This document shows, piece by piece, positions 4,563 to 28,348 of a DNA stretch of 32,907 nt. Location: NCBI RefSeq assembly GCF_024055795.1, contig NZ_JAMXMY010000039.1:1-32907 (forward strand), given 5' to 3'. Source of the DNA: Actinoallomurus purpureus (GTDB taxonomy: Bacteria > Actinomycetota > Actinomycetes > Streptosporangiales > Streptosporangiaceae). Position 1 is the stretch's first letter. Each line of letters starts with the position of its first letter. The position numbers were made by a program, and so were the translations under genes. Under the pieces are notes generated by a model, which was not told the origin of the DNA, did not search any database, and saw only the letters and a program-made list of their open reading frames with translations.

Positions 4563-5651
4563 ATGACGGCACCGAAGGTCCACCTCGGCGACCTGTTTGA
4601 CCTCGGCGAACTCGCCGAGATGCTCGACGCCGGGTACATCCGCCAGCAGATCCACCCGGACCTCCCGCTGACGATCCTCAACTACACCGAGAAGGCACAG
4701 TACGAGCGGGTCTGGACCGACGTGACCCGCCAGTGCCGCGGCCTCATCGTCCGGGACGGCTCCTACGTCGTCGCCCGGCCGTGGGCGAAGTTCTTCAACT
4801 ACGGCGAGCACCCCGACGGCGCCCTCGACCTGGCCGCGCCGGCCGAGGTCACCGACAAGCAGGACGGCAGCCTCGGCATCCTCTACCTCGGCACAGACGG
4901 CTGGATGATCGCCACCCGTGGATCGTTCACCAGCGACCAGGCGCTCCACGCGACCACTATCTTCCGTCGGCGGTACGGCGACTTCGAGCCCCCGGACGGC
5001 ATGACCGCCCTCTTCGAGATCGTCTACCCGGCGAACCGCATCGTCTTGGACTACGGCAATACCGACGATCTGATCCTTCTCGGCGCCGTCGACATCGCGA
5101 CGGGCGAAGCGGTCGGCCCGGACTGGGTGTCCGGCTGGTACGGCCCGATGGCCGAGACCTTCCCGGCCCGCACCCTCGGCGAAGCGCTCGCGCTACCGCC
5201 GCGGCCGAACGCCGAAGGCGTCGTCGTCCGCCTCATCGACACCGGCCTGATGGTGAAGTTGAAACAGGAAGACTACGTTCAGCTCCACCGCATCGTCACC
5301 GGCCTGAACGCCCGCGTCGTCTGGGAACAGCTCGGTGCCGGCAAGACCGTCGCGGACACCTGCGAGCCGCTCCCCGACGAGCTCCACGACTGGGTGAAGG
5401 ACCTCGCCGCGGACCTGACCGGCAAGGCCCTCGCGATGCTCACCGCCGCCCGCGAAGAGCACGAGACGATCCTCGCCGGCCTGCCGGACGGCTGGACACG
5501 CAAGGACTACGCGGCCATCGCCGGGCGCTCCACGAACCGGGCGTGGCTGTTCCTGCTCCTGGACGGCAAGGACCCGTCACCGAAGATCTGGCGGACGCTC
5601 CGCCCTTCCGGCGACGACAGGCCGCTGAACATCACCGAGGACGTGGCGTAA
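4563..5651 (+). CDS. T4 Rnl1-type RNA ligase
   Basis: This 362-residue protein carries the nucleotidyltransferase motifs of ATP-dependent RNA ligases. Motif I is KQDGS with the predicted AMP-accepting lysine at residue 99, the position it also holds in T4 Rnl1. Motif III is FEIVY (151-155), motif IV EGVVVR (218-223) and motif V VKLK (231-234). The C-terminal third is helical, as in Rnl1. The family seals 5'-phosphate to 3'-OH RNA ends, classically to repair tRNA cut by host anticodon nucleases. Its stop overlaps the start of the Pnkp gene (TAATG), so the two repair enzymes are co-translated. Start at ATG 4563; the binding site is weak. Confidence 0.93.
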   Translation: MTAPKVHLGDLFDLGELAEMLDAGYIRQQIHPDLPLTILNYTEKAQYERVWTDVTRQCRGLIVRDGSYVVARPWAKFFNYGEHPDGALDLAAPAEVTDKQDGSLGILYLGTDGWMIATRGSFTSDQALHATTIFRRRYGDFEPPDGMTALFEIVYPANRIVLDYGNTDDLILLGAVDIATGEAVGPDWVSGWYGPMAETFPARTLGEALALPPRPNAEGVVVRLIDTGLMVKLKQEDYVQLHRIVTGLNARVVWEQLGAGKTVADTCEPLPDELHDWVKDLAADLTGKALAMLTAAREEHETILAGLPDGWTRKDYAAIAGRSTNRAWLFLLLDGKDPSPKIWRTLRPSGDDRPLNITEDVA

Positions 5652-6559
5652 TGGGCACCCTCCACATCACTCGCGGCCTGCCCGGTAGCGGCAAGACCAC
5701 CTGGGCCCACCAATGGACCGCGCAGAACACCGACCGCCGGGTCCGCGTCAATCGCGACGACCTGCGGGGGATGCTCGACGACAGCCGCTGGATCAAAGGC
5801 GTCACCGAAGGGCGGATGCTCGCCGCCCGTGACGCCGCCGTCCTGGCCCTGCTCCGCCTCGGCCTGGACGTCGCCTGTGACGACACGAACCTGCCGAATC
5901 ACGCCGTCCGCGCCCTGGCCAAGCTCGCCCGGCAGGCCGGCGCGGAGCTCGAGGTCCACGACTTCACCGACGTGCCGCTGGAGACCTGCATCGCCCGCGA
6001 CGCGGCACGGGACCGGACGGTCGGCGAGGCGGTCATCCGGGACATGCACGCCCGGTTCCTGAACGGCCGGCCGCGGCCACTGCCCCTCCCGGCCGATCTG
6101 ACGCCCATCGTCGCGGGACCTCGGCCGTACGAGCCGAAGCCCGGCACCCGCCGGGCCGCGCTCGTCGACATCGACGGCACCGTCGCCCTCATGGGCGCCC
6201 GATCGCCCTACGACGAGACCAGCGTCAGCGACGACCAGCCGAACCGGCCGGTGATCGAGGTCGCCCGCGCGCTGCGCGGTGACGGGTGCCGGATCGTGTT
6301 CCTGTCCGGCCGCACCGAGACCTGCCGCGAGGCCACCACCGCCTGGCTCCACCGACACGTCGGCGGCCAGTTCGACGGCCCGTTCATGCGCAAGGCCGGC
6401 GACACCCGCCGGGACTCGATCGTCAAGGCCGAGCTCTTCGACCGGCACGTCCGCGACACCTACGACGTGAGGTGCGTCCTGGATGACCGCAACCAGGTCG
6501 TCGAGATGTGGCGGTCGCTGGGCCTGACGGTCCTGCAGGTTGCGGAAGGAGATTTCTGA
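5651..6559 (+). CDS. pnkp: Polynucleotide 5'-kinase/3'-phosphatase (T4 Pnkp type)
   Basis: The 302-residue product is essentially the length of T4 Pnkp (301). The kinase P-loop GLPGSGKT spans 9-16 with K15 and T16. The acylphosphatase (DxDGT) motif DIDGT is at 173-177, followed by FLSGR (217-221) and LDDRNQVVEMWR (277-288). These enzymes remove 2',3'-cyclic or 3' phosphate and phosphorylate the 5'-OH, preparing RNA ends for the ligase encoded just upstream. GAGGA precedes ATG 5651, which overlaps the ligase stop. Some mycobacteriophages also carry Rnl1 and Pnkp. The antidefence role is inferred. Confidence 0.95.
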   Translation: MGTLHITRGLPGSGKTTWAHQWTAQNTDRRVRVNRDDLRGMLDDSRWIKGVTEGRMLAARDAAVLALLRLGLDVACDDTNLPNHAVRALAKLARQAGAELEVHDFTDVPLETCIARDAARDRTVGEAVIRDMHARFLNGRPRPLPLPADLTPIVAGPRPYEPKPGTRRAALVDIDGTVALMGARSPYDETSVSDDQPNRPVIEVARALRGDGCRIVFLSGRTETCREATTAWLHRHVGGQFDGPFMRKAGDTRRDSIVKAELFDRHVRDTYDVRCVLDDRNQVVEMWRSLGLTVLQVAEGDF

Positions 6560-7282: not shown

Positions 7283-8716
7283 GTGACCTCCACCCCGCAG
7301 CAAGGAGGCGGCAGCGTGACCGGCATCAAACGCGGTCAGGAGCTCGCGGCACAGGTCGCACGGTCGGTCGATGACCGGCTGGCGGTCGCCTGGGTCCACA
7401 CGGCCGCGCTCGTTCAGCATGCGGCAAGACTCGGCCTCATCCCCGCCCAACAGGACATGCCCGGCAGCACCGTCGACAGCATTCGGGCTGGCGTTGAGCA
7501 GATCGCCGCTGTCCACCCGGGCCTCGCGGACCTGACCGATCCCCGCGTCACCCCGATCTGGGACCAGAAACCAGACGAAGATGACGCTGCTGCGATCGTC
7601 GCGGCCTGGCGTGACACGGACCTGAACCCGCTGCGTCACCGCCCCGACGGATACCTCCTCGGCGACCTGTACCAGGGCTTGTCGGTTGAGGCACGCAAAG
7701 GCCGGGCGCTCTGCCAGACCCCGCAGTTCATCACCGACCTGCTGCTGGACATCTCCTACGACCACGCCTACCGCGAGCACGGCCCTCACATTCGGATGAT
7801 CGACCCGTCCTGCGGGACCGGGCACATCCTCGTTGAGTCGCTGATCCGCGGTCACATCCGGCAACGGCACGGGTTCGGCCGCGCTGAGGCTCCGGCGATC
7901 CCGTGGCGGACACCCGCCCTCGAGCGGGTCGCGGCCGCGCTGGAGACGGTGCATGGCGTTGATCTCGACCCCTACGCCGTCCTGCTTGCCCGCTACCGGC
8001 TGCTCGTCATGGCCCGTGCGCTGTTGCGCGGCGACCGCGCGACACCCACCGCCAGCGAGCTGGCGGCGCTGCCGCTGAACGTCGCCGCAGCTGACTCGCT
8101 TCTCGCCACGGACGAGCCGCTGCTGACCCGCGGCGCCTACCACGCGGTGGTCGCGAACCCGCCGTACATCACCTGCAAGGACAAGGCCACCAACGAAGCG
8201 ATTCGGGCCCGCTACCCGGAGGTCTGCCACAGCAAGTTCTCGCTCGCCCTGCCGTTCCACGCGCTGATGACAGAGCTGTTGGTGCCGGGCGGCTGGTGCG
8301 CCCAGCTCACCGCGAACAGCTTCATGAAGCGTGAGTTCGGCAAACGCTACGTCGAGCAGTGGCTGACCAGACTGGACCTGCGCTGGGTCATCGACACGTC
8401 CGGTGCGTACATTCCCGGGCACGGCACGCCGACGGTGATCCTCGTCAACCGGAACCAGCCGCCCGCGGCCGAGACGGTCCACGCGGTCTTGGGTGTCCGT
8501 GGTGAACCGAGCCGTCCGGCCGATCCTGCGCAGGGTGTGGTGTGGCGGGCGATCGCCAGCGCGGTCCGGGAGAAGGAAGCGTTCATCAAGCTTGCTGCAG
8601 CACTCAACCCGATCGAGCCAGCGCCTGTTCCGGGCTCAGTACCCGTTCTGCCGGATCCGGGTGCCACGTCATTTGAGCAGCCCAGCCTCTTTGACCTGCT
8701 GGAGAGTGCCGCATGA
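7283..8716 (+). CDS. N6-adenine DNA methyltransferase
   Basis: The 477-residue protein has the S-adenosylmethionine motif I DPSCGTG at 174-180 and the catalytic NPPY at 292-295, the signature of amino-methyltransferases acting on adenine. Further matches are GVDLDPYA (225-232) and a late hydrophobic region ending GTPTVILVN. Size and layout resemble the methylase part of type IIG or PglX-like enzymes, but no nuclease motif is evident. It starts at GTG 7283 with AGGAG upstream. In a phage it probably protects DNA from restriction. Its stop overlaps the next ATG, linking it to the DpdA-like gene. Confidence 0.9.
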   Translation: MTSTPQQGGGSVTGIKRGQELAAQVARSVDDRLAVAWVHTAALVQHAARLGLIPAQQDMPGSTVDSIRAGVEQIAAVHPGLADLTDPRVTPIWDQKPDEDDAAAIVAAWRDTDLNPLRHRPDGYLLGDLYQGLSVEARKGRALCQTPQFITDLLLDISYDHAYREHGPHIRMIDPSCGTGHILVESLIRGHIRQRHGFGRAEAPAIPWRTPALERVAAALETVHGVDLDPYAVLLARYRLLVMARALLRGDRATPTASELAALPLNVAAADSLLATDEPLLTRGAYHAVVANPPYITCKDKATNEAIRARYPEVCHSKFSLALPFHALMTELLVPGGWCAQLTANSFMKREFGKRYVEQWLTRLDLRWVIDTSGAYIPGHGTPTVILVNRNQPPAAETVHAVLGVRGEPSRPADPAQGVVWRAIASAVREKEAFIKLAAALNPIEPAPVPGSVPVLPDPGATSFEQPSLFDLLESAA

Positions 8717-8982
8717 TCATCCAGGCCAACACCGAGACTCGTCGGTGTCGCTGCGGCGAGACCATCACCCCGTCCGGTTCCGGCTGGATCGGCGACGACG
8801 GCTGGGAGACCTGCGCCGACACCGACAACTTCCACGAGCCCGCCCACCGCTGCCCCGCCTGCGGCGAATTCCTCGGCGAAGACGAGGTCCTCAGCTGGGT
8901 GCACTGGCTCACCGATGGCACCAAGACCCCGTTCTGCCAGGCCCGCCCGGACACTGTCCCGACACCGGGCGGTGCCGCGTGA
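8713..8982 (+). CDS. Small zinc-ribbon-like protein
   Basis: Eighty-nine residues from ATG 8713, overlapping the methylase stop (ATGA). CRCG (12-15), C34, CPAC (47-50) and a late C near 74 suggest one zinc site. It lies between two DNA-modification enzymes and is coupled to both (ATGA before, GTGA after). A role in the modification pathway is possible but not shown. Confidence 0.8.
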   Translation: MIIQANTETRRCRCGETITPSGSGWIGDDGWETCADTDNFHEPAHRCPACGEFLGEDEVLSWVHWLTDGTKTPFCQARPDTVPTPGGAA

Positions 8983-10151
8983 CCGCCCTCATGACGCTCC
9001 CCGCAGCCGGTGAACAGCCCCCGCTGCGGGGAGTAACCACCCTGCCGCCAGCACTCAGCAGAGAGCCCGCAGCCGACCGCCCGGCCCGTTCGCCCCTGAC
9101 GTTCTACCTCGGCATCAGCGAACCGTCCTGGGTGGGCGAGGACTCTCCGCTCCCCGACCACATCCCGGTCTGCCTGTCCTGCTACCGGATCCGGGACCGC
9201 AAGAGCCTCCCGCGCGCCACCCGCCCGGTGCTGCTCGACTCCGGCGGGTTCTCCGTCCTCAGCAAGAAGCGCGCCGACGGCAGCCCGGCCCGCTGGGATC
9301 TCACCCCGCAGCAGTTCGTGAAACGGGTCCGGTGGATCATCCGCCAGCTGGGCCGCATGCCGGACGCGATCGCCATCATGGACTGGATGTGCGAGCAGTT
9401 CATGCTCGCCCGCACCGGCCTGACCGTCGAAGAACACCGGCGCCGCACCGTCATCTCCGCCCTGGAGCTGATGTGGATCGCCCCGGACCTGCCGTGGATG
9501 TTCGTCCTGCAGGGCAACGCCGAAGACGGGCCTGACGACCACCTGCGCTGCGCCGACATGTACGAGCAGGCCGGCATCGACCTGGCCAAGGCACCGATGG
9601 TCGGAGTCGGGTCCGTGTGCCGCCTGCAGGCCACCGACCAGATCATCACCCTGTTCGCCGCCCTCGATGAGCGGTTCGCCGGCCAGGACGTCCGGCTGCA
9701 CGGCTTGGGCATGAAGAAGCTCGCCTACGTCGTCGCGCCCGCCGCGCACTCCTGGGACTCCCAGGGCTGGTCACTGCGGGGCCGTAACGCCGGGCCCTGC
9801 CAGCACGGCCTCGGGCACGTCCACGAAGGGAACTGCCCGTACTTCGCCGTCGAGTGGTACGACCAGGTGCTCACCGCGGCCGCCCGCGTCACCCCAGAGC
9901 AGTGGCGCCGGACAGTCCGGGCCCGCACCGTCCGACGCAACCAGCAGACGCTGTTCGCCCCGCCCGCGCCGCACATGCCCACGCTCGGCCAGTCGCTCGC
10001 CCGCGCGGCCCGCGTGTTCCTGCCCGACAACGGCGACCCCGAGCAGACCGAGCTCGCTGCGGCCCTCGACGCCTTCCGTGCCCAGGTGACCGCCCCACAG
10101 CCCTCCTCCGCTTCCCAGCTCCACCGACCCGAAGGGAATCCTCATGAGTGA
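8979..10151 (+). CDS. dpdA: DpdA-like 7-deazaguanine DNA transglycosylase
   Basis: The 390-residue product resembles the TGT-like DpdA family, which exchanges guanine in DNA for a 7-deazaguanine such as preQ0. Features seen include FYLGISEPSW (42-51), LDSGGFS (86-92), DWMCEQFM (135-142), VLQGN, the VGVGSVCR segment typical of the family, and LHGLGMKK. A Cys/His cluster near the C-terminus (CQHG, HVH, NC) fits the TGT zinc site. GTG 8979 overlaps the previous stop; ATG 8991 is an alternative. No queuosine-pathway genes (folE, queC, queD, queE) are in this window, so the base would come from the host or from elsewhere in the phage. The exact modified base cannot be read from sequence. Confidence 0.85.
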   Translation: MTALMTLPAAGEQPPLRGVTTLPPALSREPAADRPARSPLTFYLGISEPSWVGEDSPLPDHIPVCLSCYRIRDRKSLPRATRPVLLDSGGFSVLSKKRADGSPARWDLTPQQFVKRVRWIIRQLGRMPDAIAIMDWMCEQFMLARTGLTVEEHRRRTVISALELMWIAPDLPWMFVLQGNAEDGPDDHLRCADMYEQAGIDLAKAPMVGVGSVCRLQATDQIITLFAALDERFAGQDVRLHGLGMKKLAYVVAPAAHSWDSQGWSLRGRNAGPCQHGLGHVHEGNCPYFAVEWYDQVLTAAARVTPEQWRRTVRARTVRRNQQTLFAPPAPHMPTLGQSLARAARVFLPDNGDPEQTELAAALDAFRAQVTAPQPSSASQLHRPEGNPHE

Positions 10152-27059: not shown

Positions 27060-27299
27060 TCAGAAGTCCGGTTCTTCGATGCGGCGGGGGACCTGGCGGT
27101 AGTTCTCGCCGGGGACGGGCTCGAGGTCGGCGGCGCGCATCCAGACGTCGACCCCACGCCAGAGGACGTATTCGCGGGTGAGCCATGCGACGTGGGCGTG
27201 CCAGGTGCCGCGTTTGTCGCGCGCCCAGGCGAGGAGGAAGACGTGCCGGCCGGTTGCGCGGATGCGCACGACGGGAGCGTGCGTCTCCTGAGCCTTCAC
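27060..27299 (-). CDS. Small hypothetical protein
   Basis: A 79-residue product from GTG 27299 (MKAQETHAPVVRIRATGRHV). Strand-rich and aromatic (VFLLAWARDKRGTWHAHVAWL, EYVLWRG), compatible with a small beta-barrel. No clear Shine-Dalgarno. It begins directly beside the CRISPR-like region, behind the terminator at 27323-27346. Function unknown. Confidence 0.68.
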   Translation of the reverse strand: MKAQETHAPVVRIRATGRHVFLLAWARDKRGTWHAHVAWLTREYVLWRGVDVWMRAADLEPVPGENYRQVPRRIEEPDF

Positions 27300-27322
27300 G
27301 GTTCGAACAGAGTAACGACGAA

Positions 27323-27346
27323 GCCCCGCCCGGTGATGGGCGGGGC
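27323..27346. terminator. Bidirectional terminator beside CRISPR-like repeats
   Basis: GCCCCGCCC (27323-27331) and GGGCGGGGC (27338-27346) form a perfect 9-bp stem on a 6-base loop, followed by TTT on the plus strand. A leftward transcript through the repeats at 27349-27502 would stop here, before the next gene. Confidence 0.75.
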
Positions 27347-27348
27347 TT

Positions 27349-27502
27349 TCGTTCCCCCACGTGGGTGGGGAGAGCGGCGCTTCTCCTTGGAGATAGCCCG
27401 CTGGCGCCGGTTCACCCCACTGGTGTGGGGATCCCCGCCGGAGCGGGGCCGACTGTCCGCCGGAGAACAGCTACGGATCATCCCCGCATGCGCGGGGAGC
27501 AC
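27349..27502 (-). CRISPR. Cas-less type I-E-like mini-array of three diverging repeats
   Basis: The right-hand repeat (27475-27502) reads on the minus strand GTGCTCCCCGC, GCAT, then GCGGGGATGATCC, close to actinobacterial type I-E repeats. Repeat 2 (27409-27435) keeps the layout with stem CCCCAC/GTGGGG and end TGAACC on the minus strand, but is one base shorter. Repeat 1 (about 27349-27375) has the same stem and loop GTGG. The stems begin at 27482, 27415 and 27355. Intervening stretches are 33 bases (27376-27408) and 39 bases (27436-27474); the first fits a type I-E spacer. Decay increases toward the left, as at the trailer end of arrays. No cas gene is in the window. Confidence 0.7.
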
Positions 27503-27565
27503 GTGAAGCAGGGTAGCGCCCGGCGGCATGGTGGCAGTCCGGTGGCAGGATCCGGCCATCCCAGG

Positions 27566-27620
27566 GATTTCCGATACCGCTTATCCCGTGAGTGTGCTTG
27601 AATAAGCGGTATCGGAAATC
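27566..27620. repeat. Perfect 19-bp inverted repeat with 17-bp spacer
   Basis: GATTTCCGATACCGCTTAT (27566-27584) is repeated exactly in reverse complement at 27602-27620, around the spacer 27585-27601. It is the longest perfect inverted repeat I found. It lies 17 bases before the start of the downstream gene and 63 bases from the nearest CRISPR-like repeat. It may be an operator, an origin element, a recombination site, or a 5' leader hairpin. Confidence 0.9.
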
Positions 27621-27637
27621 GAGTGATGGAGCCACCG

Positions 27638-28348
27638 ATGGGCGACGTGAAGATCGAGACCACCGAAGGCCGCACCTACCTGACCAGCCCCTACAACCCC
27701 GCCGTGCCCGCGAAAGCCAAGGCCATCGGCGGCCGGTGGGACGGCGGGCGCAAGGCGTGGCACTTCGATGCTCGCGACGAAGACCGCGTCGCCGCCCTCG
27801 CCCGCGAGATCTACGGCACCGACGGACGCGCCCCCGAAGGCGACCTCGTCACCGTCCGCGTCAAGCTCGTCGACCACGAAGGCAGCAAGTGGGACAACCA
27901 CGTCGAGTTCGCCGGCCGTCGCATCGCCGAACGCCCCGGCCGCGACATGCCCGTCCGCTTCGCCGCGAACGTCGTCCTCGTCGAAGGCACCCTGCCCAGC
28001 TCAGGCGGGTCGATGCGCTACCCGAACATCGACGCTGGCGACGACGCGATCGTGGAAATCCGCGACCTGCCCCGCTCCGCACTGTCCGTCGAAAGCGAAA
28101 ACTCCTACGAGATCGTCGACCAGGCCGTCGACGTCGATGCGCTTCTGGCCGAGCGTGAGCGGCTCCTCGCCCGTGTCGCTGAGATCGACGCCCTGCTGCC
28201 CGAGCCGGAGGGCACCGAGATCACCACCCGCGAGGCCGCCGCCGCGCTCGGCGTCTCGGTCCGCACCGTCCAGCGATGGGCCGCCGCCGGCAAGGTCCAG
28301 GCCCACAAGGACGACGCTGGCCGCTGGGTCATCACCATCACCATCTGA
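27638..28348 (+). CDS. Protein with aromatic N-terminal domain and excisionase-type HTH
   Basis: The 236-residue product is taken from ATG 27638, with GGAG six bases upstream; GTG 27623 and ATG 27626 are alternatives. The N-terminal 55 residues (SPYNPAVPAKAKAIGGRWDGG, KAWHF) match a pattern seen in phage and plasmid proteins of unknown role. The middle has an OB-like strand set. The C-terminus (about 188-236) is an excisionase/MerR-type HTH (ITTREAAAALGVSVRTVQRW, then HKDDAGRWVI). It could bind the 19-bp inverted repeat immediately upstream; that is inference. Confidence 0.82.
   Translation: MGDVKIETTEGRTYLTSPYNPAVPAKAKAIGGRWDGGRKAWHFDARDEDRVAALAREIYGTDGRAPEGDLVTVRVKLVDHEGSKWDNHVEFAGRRIAERPGRDMPVRFAANVVLVEGTLPSSGGSMRYPNIDAGDDAIVEIRDLPRSALSVESENSYEIVDQAVDVDALLAERERLLARVAEIDALLPEPEGTEITTREAAAALGVSVRTVQRWAAAGKVQAHKDDAGRWVITITI

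What the first reader, a model, noticed from the sequence alone, without database searches (positions are those of the whole stretch)
27349..27502. Cas-less type I-E-like repeats in a phage: a mini-array or an RNA anti-CRISPR
Three units with 16-nt hairpins (6-bp stem, 4-nt loop) share the type I-E repeat layout. The stem changes are compensatory (CCCCGC/GCGGGG becomes CCCCAC/GTGGGG), so structure is kept while sequence drifts. The right unit is nearly canonical and the left ones more decayed. One interval is 33 bases, typical of type I-E; the other is 39. An extra hairpin of the same class (CCCCGC, CGGA, GCGGGG at 27433-27448) overlaps repeat 2. A terminator lies at the expected 3' end of a leftward RNA, and no cas genes are seen. 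Phage repeat mimics that hijack Cas proteins (RNA-based anti-CRISPRs) and phage mini-arrays aimed at rivals are both known concepts. This could be either, using compact, structure-conserved repeats.
Basis: partly seen in the sequence, partly recalled or inferred. Interest (0 to 1): 0.9.

Follow-up and report, generated by a model that had tools for sequence, protein, structure and literature searches.

The report
Phage CRISPR-repeat RNA with short spacers
A bacterial virus carries a small RNA-gene-like locus made of copies of its hosts' CRISPR repeats set unusually close together; many other viruses carry the same design, which probably jams or misdirects the bacterial CRISPR immune machine.

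Summary
The repeats are real. R1 (27475-27502, minus strand) differs by one loop base from type I-E repeats of long arrays in cas regions. The same R1-20-R2 unit sits in another genus near a homologue of the window's neighbouring gene.

This spacing is a recurrent class. In IMG/VR, of 82 type I-E hairpin pairs 36-56 nt apart, 55 are at 49/50. Spacers of 14, 20, 26 and 32 nt fit L=6N-4 for N Cas7 subunits. The arrays often have a -10-like box before and a terminator after. Short spacers match neither their own phage nor cas promoters above chance.

Best explanation: a multi-repeat RNA anti-CRISPR whose truncated crRNAs tie up host Cascade. Some prophage arrays instead carry guides resembling the host's own cas-regulating RNA (two Pantoea prophages and two others). 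Ten literature searches found neither described. There are no RNA or binding data, and this genome shows no Cas6e or Cse1.

The parts
27532..27537 (-). -35-like hexamer CTGCCA (4 of 6 to TTGACA)
   Evidence: weak, consensus match only
27510..27515 (-). -10-like TACCCT, 18 nt before the R1 stem, 16 nt after the -35-like box
   Evidence: TANNNT at 9-20 nt upstream in 18 of 56 arrays, random mean 1.5
27475..27502 (-). R1, complete type I-E repeat GTGCTCCCCGCGCATGCGGGGATGATCC (stem 27497-27482, 8-nt handle 27481-27474)
   Evidence: one mismatch to array repeats in cas regions
27454..27473 (-). 20-nt spacer TAGCTGTTCTCCGGCGGACA; folds as a hairpin (CTGTTC/GGACAG)
27433..27453 (-). R2: GTCGG + stem CCCCGCTCCGGCGGGG; normal handle lost (ATCCCCAC)
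   Evidence: same core in L027
27407..27430 (-). R3: stem CCCCACACCAGTGGGG with handle-like TGAACCGG
   Evidence: CCCCAC/GTGGGG units also follow viral arrays (e.g. L090, L127) and L239
27376..27406 (-). 31-nt spacer of R3-R4, folds as a stable hairpin
27355..27375 (-). R4: GCTCT + stem CCCCACCCACGTGGGG, last unit, handle degenerate
27321..27348 (.). 11-bp inverted repeat, possible terminator of the RNA (or of the opposite strand)
   Evidence: not flagged

Best explanation
The locus is a small-RNA gene of a temperate phage, read on the minus strand, whose transcript imitates a type I-E pre-crRNA. Host Cas6e would cut behind the R1 and R2 stems and give a truncated crRNA: 8-nt handle, 20-nt spacer, R2 hairpin. 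Cascade would assemble on it with four Cas7 instead of six. As the spacer has no detectable target and folds on itself, these complexes would be idle and draw Cas proteins from real crRNAs: a multi-repeat RNA anti-CRISPR with shortened spacers. Shown: repeat identity; four-unit layout; the same R1-20-R2 unit in a second genus; a viral class with quantised spacing, conserved internal handles, promoter-like and terminator context; no targets above chance for the short class. Inferred: transcription, Cas6e cutting, four-Cas7 assembly, sequestration. R3-R4 (step 60) may be a second unit of the same RNA; its role is open.
For: R1 is 27 of 28 bases of repeats in cas-region arrays. R1-20-R2-terminator in L027 with identical R2 flank. 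Viral hairpin pairs: 55 of 82 at 49/50 nt; deduplicated 62 of 94 in viral mini-arrays against 11 of 49 in long arrays of the genome scan. One permuted-stem control pattern: 1 stretch against 59. 14/20/26/32-nt spacers fit L=6N-4 (PMC7296934 passage). Handle position 7, not fixed by the search pattern, is C in 102 of 102 internal and 27 of 57 last viral units. TANNNT upstream 18 of 56, terminator downstream 27 of 56. No own-phage target, no cas-promoter excess for 49/50 spacers (4 of 64, shuffled 4.1). Short spacers fold more than host spacers (mean z -0.59, n=61, against -0.08, n=120). Two solitary type I-E repeats are published inhibitors of a type I-E system (passage).
Against: No RNA, cutting or binding data. 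This genome has no detectable Cas6e or Cse1, so no matching target in the isolate itself. R2 overlaps R3, and the R3-R4 step is near-canonical. Cas-adjacent regulatory units and two Pantoea prophage units with the same 49/50 step clearly look like guides, so a short spacer does not by itself mean decoy. Structure and handle-pairing signals are modest; no alignable covariation in the linker. A site with AAG and two mismatches to the window spacer exists in the same genome; the reversed control pattern gave one hit at up to three mismatches.
Confidence: 0.5

Rival explanations
1. It is a guide RNA of the CreR/CreA kind: the phage supplies a crRNA-like RNA that steers host Cascade onto a host promoter (cas operon or a Cascade-repressed toxin) and silences it; a 20-nt spacer allows binding without cutting.
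For: Cas-adjacent mini-arrays with the same step: 7 of 8 have a PAM-flanked site upstream of cas3 or cse1 (0 of 300 shuffles as good). Prophage units do the same: L168 and L491 in Pantoea, L129/L246, L114/L204. In type I-B, 20-24-nt spacers repress without interference (PMC10989794 passages).
Against: No cas-promoter seed above chance for either window spacer; 49/50 spacers as a class show none (4 of 64, shuffled 4.1); the excess is in 60-62 spacers (6 of 27), a split made after seeing the top hits. L139/L027 has none in its own host (p 0.59). The window host's own cas genes are not there to test.
Confidence: 0.25
2. It is a relic: a fragment of a host array carried by the phage and decaying, without function.
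For: R2-R4 are less canonical; the same genome has a solitary repeat on C11 (L002) and a degenerate three-repeat remnant on C6.
Against: Same 49-nt unit kept in another genus; 49/50 peak in viruses not seen in odd intervals of long arrays; promoter and terminator context of the class; intact stems.
Confidence: 0.12
3. It is a phage mini-array aimed at rival phages or plasmids.
For: Viral mini-arrays of this kind are published for archaeal viruses (review passage).
Against: No phage match to the spacers better than E=2; the one plasmid hit looked at was a repeat of an ordinary long array, the other plasmid rows were not looked at; 20-nt spacers are poor for interference in tested type I systems.
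Confidence: 0.08
4. They are ordinary regulatory or terminator hairpins in a GC-rich genome.
For: Intergenic position between two diverging ORFs; another stem at 27321-27348.
Against: 27 of 28 bases of a real repeat; four units where 0.43 are expected; no shuffle matches the R1 core; the permuted-stem pattern is nearly absent in viruses.
Confidence: 0.03

Closest known systems
Racr, RNA anti-CRISPRs from solitary repeat units (PMC10651486; abstract and passages seen)
   Same: Repeat mimic in a phage, intergenic, no cas genes; type I-E examples (RacrIE1, RacrIE2) inhibit a type I-E system.
   Different: Two to several repeats with shortened spacers, not solitary. The published finder discards full matches within 100 bp and units with similar flanks, so loci like this fall outside that survey.
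CreR/CreA, crRNA-like RNAs that make Cascade repress cas or toxin genes (review PMC12737573 and PMC9458426, passages; the primary CreR paper was not available)
   Same: Two repeats around a spacer; cas-adjacent units found here share the 49/50 step; some prophage units carry matching guides.
   Different: Window locus is not cas-linked and no target was found for its spacers.
Viral CRISPR mini-arrays in inter-virus conflict (PMC6858448 listing only; review passage)
   Same: Cas-less arrays of few repeats in viruses.
   Different: Those spacers target related viruses; here none found, and the spacer is 12 nt short.
Artificial short-spacer Cascades (PMC7296934, PMC10989794; passages)
   Same: 20 nt fits four Cas7 (type I-F); 20-24 nt repress without interference (type I-B).
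   Different: Laboratory constructs in other subtypes; here the lengths occur as a natural viral design with type I-E repeats.

Membership tests
Racr | Sequence mimic of a CRISPR repeat in a mobile element, outside coding genes and away from cas | tested here: met
   no cas hit in scanned window proteins
Racr | Repeat unit is solitary (no other repeat within 100 bp) | tested here: not met
   R2 49 nt from R1; criterion from PMC10651486 passages
Racr | Host carries CRISPR-Cas of the matching subtype | tested here: not met
   No Cas6e or Cse1 in this draft; relatives in the family have Cse1. In the paper about 90% of prophages, not all, meet this
Racr | Expressed as small RNA, bound by Cas proteins, inhibits interference | not testable with these tools
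   -10-like box only
CreR/CreA | Spacer partly complementary, with PAM, to a cas or toxin promoter | tested here: not met
   best seeds 7 and 6 among 3,276 PAM sites of other species' cas promoters, chance level; own-host cas absent
CreR/CreA | Linked to a cas locus | tested here: not met
   no cas in scanned window proteins
Viral mini-array against rivals | Spacers match related viruses or plasmids | tested here: not met
   nothing better than E=2 in phages; plasmid hits only checked for one record, an ordinary array
Short-spacer viral type I-E array (class described here) | Type I-E hairpins 49/50 nt apart, first one with TG..CC handle, last with degenerate handle | tested here: met
   window R1-R2; class

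The most novel reading that the evidence does not exclude
Phages of several bacterial phyla carry composite type I-E RNA loci with two jobs. Units with spacers cut by whole Cas7 footprints (14, 20 or 26 nt) load Cascade into truncated, mostly idle complexes. Other units resemble the guide of the host's own CreR/CreA and turn Cascade against its cas promoter, or keep a Cascade-guarded toxin silent while CRISPR is being disabled. The window locus would be such a composite: a short unit (R1-R2) and a near-full-length unit (R3-R4) whose host target is still unknown.
Probability: 0.3. Interest if true: 0.93.

Novelty: new variant of a known kind. Interest (0 to 1): 0.8.

Why it matters
RNA anti-CRISPRs were surveyed as solitary repeats with a filter that discards loci like this one, so a sizeable class may have been passed over. 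The 6-nt ladder of natural viral spacing is a sign, readable from genomes alone, that Cascade assembly is what is selected. Prophage guides matching the host's own CreR/CreA sites would be a further counter-defence: using the host's autoregulation to shut off cas genes, or to stop a Cascade-guarded toxin from firing. Both can be tested directly, and cultivated Streptomyces phages (Ignacio and relatives) carry such an array.

Tried and rejected
Rfam: no match at gathering score in the window; 12 sub-threshold matches in 27200-27700, none a repeat RNA. tRNA: none. Obligatory coupling to the HTH/DUF5710 gene: rejected; L029 has that gene (72%) and no such hairpin in its 6.7 kb, and in L027 the pair lies some 670 nt beyond the gene's other end. 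Exact scans of viral contigs with the R1 core or R2 with flank: no hit; the class came out only through the spacing pattern.

Cas-promoter guidance as the job of the whole viral class: favoured for a time, then dropped. 117 viral spacers against 85 cas regions gave no excess over shuffled or reversed ones; over 153 promoter segments all spacers together gave 10 at seed >=8 against a shuffled mean of 6.1, maximum 10. Only 60-62 spacers show an excess (6 of 27; shuffled mean 1.65, none of 60 sets reached 6), a split made after seeing the top hits, so exploratory. Own-host test: of 12 loci not linked to cas, only L246 (62-nt unit) was beaten by 0 of 300 shuffles; L239 (p 0.02) and the L246 49-nt unit (p 0.04) are borderline and uncorrected; for L204 the cas3 start was not found there, and its site came out only. 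L177, cas-adjacent, shows no site. L232's spacer matches codons that I read as the cas7e LNRDDT motif (recalled, no call) with AAC PAM in several cas regions; possibly coincidence, not used. Handle-spacer pairing: 11 of 61 against 3.9 with swapped handles (maximum 9 of 200), but host arrays are slightly raised too (82 of 757 against 63.5). Linker covariation: none alignable; in L078, L087 and L143 the minimum-energy fold pairs R1 with R2 rather than forming the repeat hairpins.

Control patterns: one search is the permuted-stem control (1 stretch); (0 stretches) is not a permuted control but the same stem lengthened by a G-C pair, and says little. Rows dropped: duplicates removed before the counts; arrays near locus ends dropped; intervals outside 40-62 or 42-62 left out; 120 of 757 host segments sampled; the genome scan and second viral scan stopped at 120 rows, and one search was not used for counts. 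L143 not held. I fetched cas regions for the first part of the list, 60 regions, not all.

Full report
What is there. The window is the whole of contig C32 of a 9.25-Mb draft genome. It is phage-like: integrase, two lysins, a ParA-like protein, RNA ligase, polynucleotide kinase and DpdA. Between a leftward ORF that starts at 27299 and a rightward HTH/DUF5710 gene that starts at 27623 lie four hairpins of the type I-E repeat layout, the only ones of that motif in 32,907 nt; a Markov model expects 0.43, and none of 200 simulations had four within 150 nt. On the minus strand they are R1 to R4 with steps of 49, 18 and 60 nt. R1 is complete and differs by one loop base from repeats of arrays in cas regions. 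R2 begins GTCGG, as array repeats of many members of the family do. R1 keeps a full handle, R3 one that is a base short, R2 and R4 none.

Related locus. A genome of another genus in the family (G095; the same unit appears under Planomonospora sp. ID67723) has a homologue of the HTH/DUF5710 gene (66%) and some 670 nt away the same unit: R1, 20-nt spacer, R2, then a terminator-like stem. Both share GACAGTCGGCCCCGCTC and GGCGGGGAT around R2; the spacers differ, and each folds as a hairpin. L029, a viral contig with the gene (72%), has no such hairpin.

A class. I scanned IMG/VR for two type I-E hairpins 36-56 nt apart, leaving out the canonical 61 by design. 59 contigs gave 82 pairs: 55 at 49 or 50 nt, 6 at 43, 6 at 55/56, the rest scattered. 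A permuted-stem pattern gave 1 stretch. Without duplicates, 62 of 94 such intervals in viral mini-arrays are 49/50, against 11 of 49 odd intervals in long arrays of the genome scan and 32 of 70 in its mini-arrays. With a 29-nt repeat, periods of 43, 49, 55 and 61 mean spacers of 14, 20, 26 and 32 nt, which satisfy L=6N-4 for N Cas7 as stated for a type I-F system (PMC7296934, passage); that Cas7e also covers 6 nt is general knowledge. Cultivated Streptomyces phages carry such an array: Ignacio has six hairpins with steps 61, 60, 58, 49, 51 in an unannotated stretch, and 12 phage records of that group match R1.

Signs of a transcript made of units. Of 56 arrays (viral ones plus window, L027 and Ignacio) 18 have TANNNT 9-20 nt before the first hairpin (random mean 1.5, maximum 5 of 200) and 27 a terminator within 100 nt after the last (random mean 0.45, maximum 3 of 20). 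Handle position 7, which the search pattern did not fix, is C in 102 of 102 internal viral units and 27 of 57 last ones, as expected if a unit is handle, spacer and next hairpin.

Do the spacers guide? Viral spacers show no self-target in their flanks (of 124 tested, 4 at seed >=8 against 4.65 shuffled, none at >=10). Short ones show no excess in cas promoters (4 of 64 against 4.1). They fold more than host spacers. The window's spacers have no phage match better than E=2, no cas-promoter match above chance, and one site with AAG and two mismatches in G000 that I did not resolve.

Some units do guide. Eight genome mini-arrays with this step lie within the cas region; seven have a PAM-flanked site upstream of cas3 or cse1 that none of 300 shuffles equals, in several cases with mismatches mainly at the sixth positions. 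These look like CreR. L168 is not in the cas region: it lies in a lambdoid prophage of Pantoea sp. BAV 3049, and a second unit with nearly the same guide lies among phage replication, head and tail genes of that genome. Against the host cas-promoter site with AAG, the first guide differs at positions 17 and 20 of 21, the second at 12 and 20, and the host's own cas-adjacent unit, also with a 50-nt step, at 9, 12 and 20. Prophage L129/L246 (integrase, capsid, lysin) has a 62-nt unit that differs from a site upstream of cse1 in its host only at 6 and 12 over 14 nt; the host has its own 60-nt unit there. L114/L204 has a 61-nt unit that differs at 6 and 12 over 12 nt from a site in front of a PIN-domain gene followed by cas3, again beside a host guide. 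These last two were the best hits of all 124 spacers tested, and both fall in the own host among cas regions of many species.

Reading. For the window locus I favour the decoy: complete R1 handle, 20-nt self-folding spacer, R2 hairpin, no target found. It works like a Racr but fails the solitary-repeat criterion and its isolate has no matching cas genes, so I call it a variant, not a member. The published finder removes full matches within 100 bp and units with similar flanks (PMC10651486, passages). The guide reading stays the main rival because it holds for other prophages, two of them with short spacers.

Limits. No expression or binding data. No Cas6e or Cse1 in this draft genome. Of 34 genomes searched (G000, G095 and 32 picked from the list of 49/50-nt units) 21 have Cse1, against 75 of 393 in the class; but the 34 span several phyla and eight of their units are cas-adjacent. 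IMG/VR may contain host DNA. Ten searches of open-licence PubMed Central papers found neither short-spacer viral type I-E arrays nor phage copies of CreR guides; preprints and most subscription papers, including the primary CreR paper, were not held.

Noticed in passing
G348:C3 about 4073990 (L168) and 5147729 (L491); target L378:11505: Two prophage regions of one Pantoea genome each carry a 50-nt two-repeat unit whose guide matches, with AAG, a site upstream of cse1, like the host's own cas-adjacent unit. In L168 the last hairpin is followed by TTTTTGCTTTT and may double as terminator.
   Followed up: partly
L129/L246 (62-nt unit), target in L384 upstream of cse1: Prophage guide differs from the host site only at positions 6 and 12 over 14 nt; the host has its own unit there.
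   Followed up: partly
L114/L204 (61-nt unit), target L379:5766: Guide matches a site in front of a PIN-domain gene followed by cas3 in the same genome, next to a host guide; looks like a Cascade-guarded toxin.
   Followed up: partly
L482:1081-1375 (Streptomyces phage Ignacio) and its relatives: Unannotated six-hairpin type I-E array in cultivated phages, steps 61, 60, 58, 49, 51.
   Followed up: partly
L133, L171, L187, L198, L199, L221, L233 (cas-adjacent); L177 without a site: Cas-adjacent two-repeat units with 49/50-nt step and a PAM-flanked site upstream of cas3 or cse1.
   Followed up: yes
L002 (G000:C11:212945-212972): A lone, perfect-looking type I-E repeat elsewhere in the same genome; context not examined.
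   Followed up: no
L023:3670-3814 (G000:C6): Three degenerate type I-E repeats with 61-nt step, no cas genes found in this genome by Cas6e or Cse1 search.
   Followed up: no
window 27566-27620: Perfect 19-bp inverted repeat with 17-nt loop in front of the HTH/DUF5710 gene; GGTATCGGAAATC recurs at the same place in L029, so perhaps an operator.
   Followed up: partly
window 4563-6559 and 8493-10151: RNA ligase, polynucleotide kinase and DpdA genes: possible RNA repair and DNA base modification, both plausible counter-defences.
   Followed up: no
L232 spacer against L365, L369, L370, L379, L380, L386: Spacer matches a cas-region coding stretch (read by me as the cas7e LNRDDT codons) with AAC before it.
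   Followed up: no
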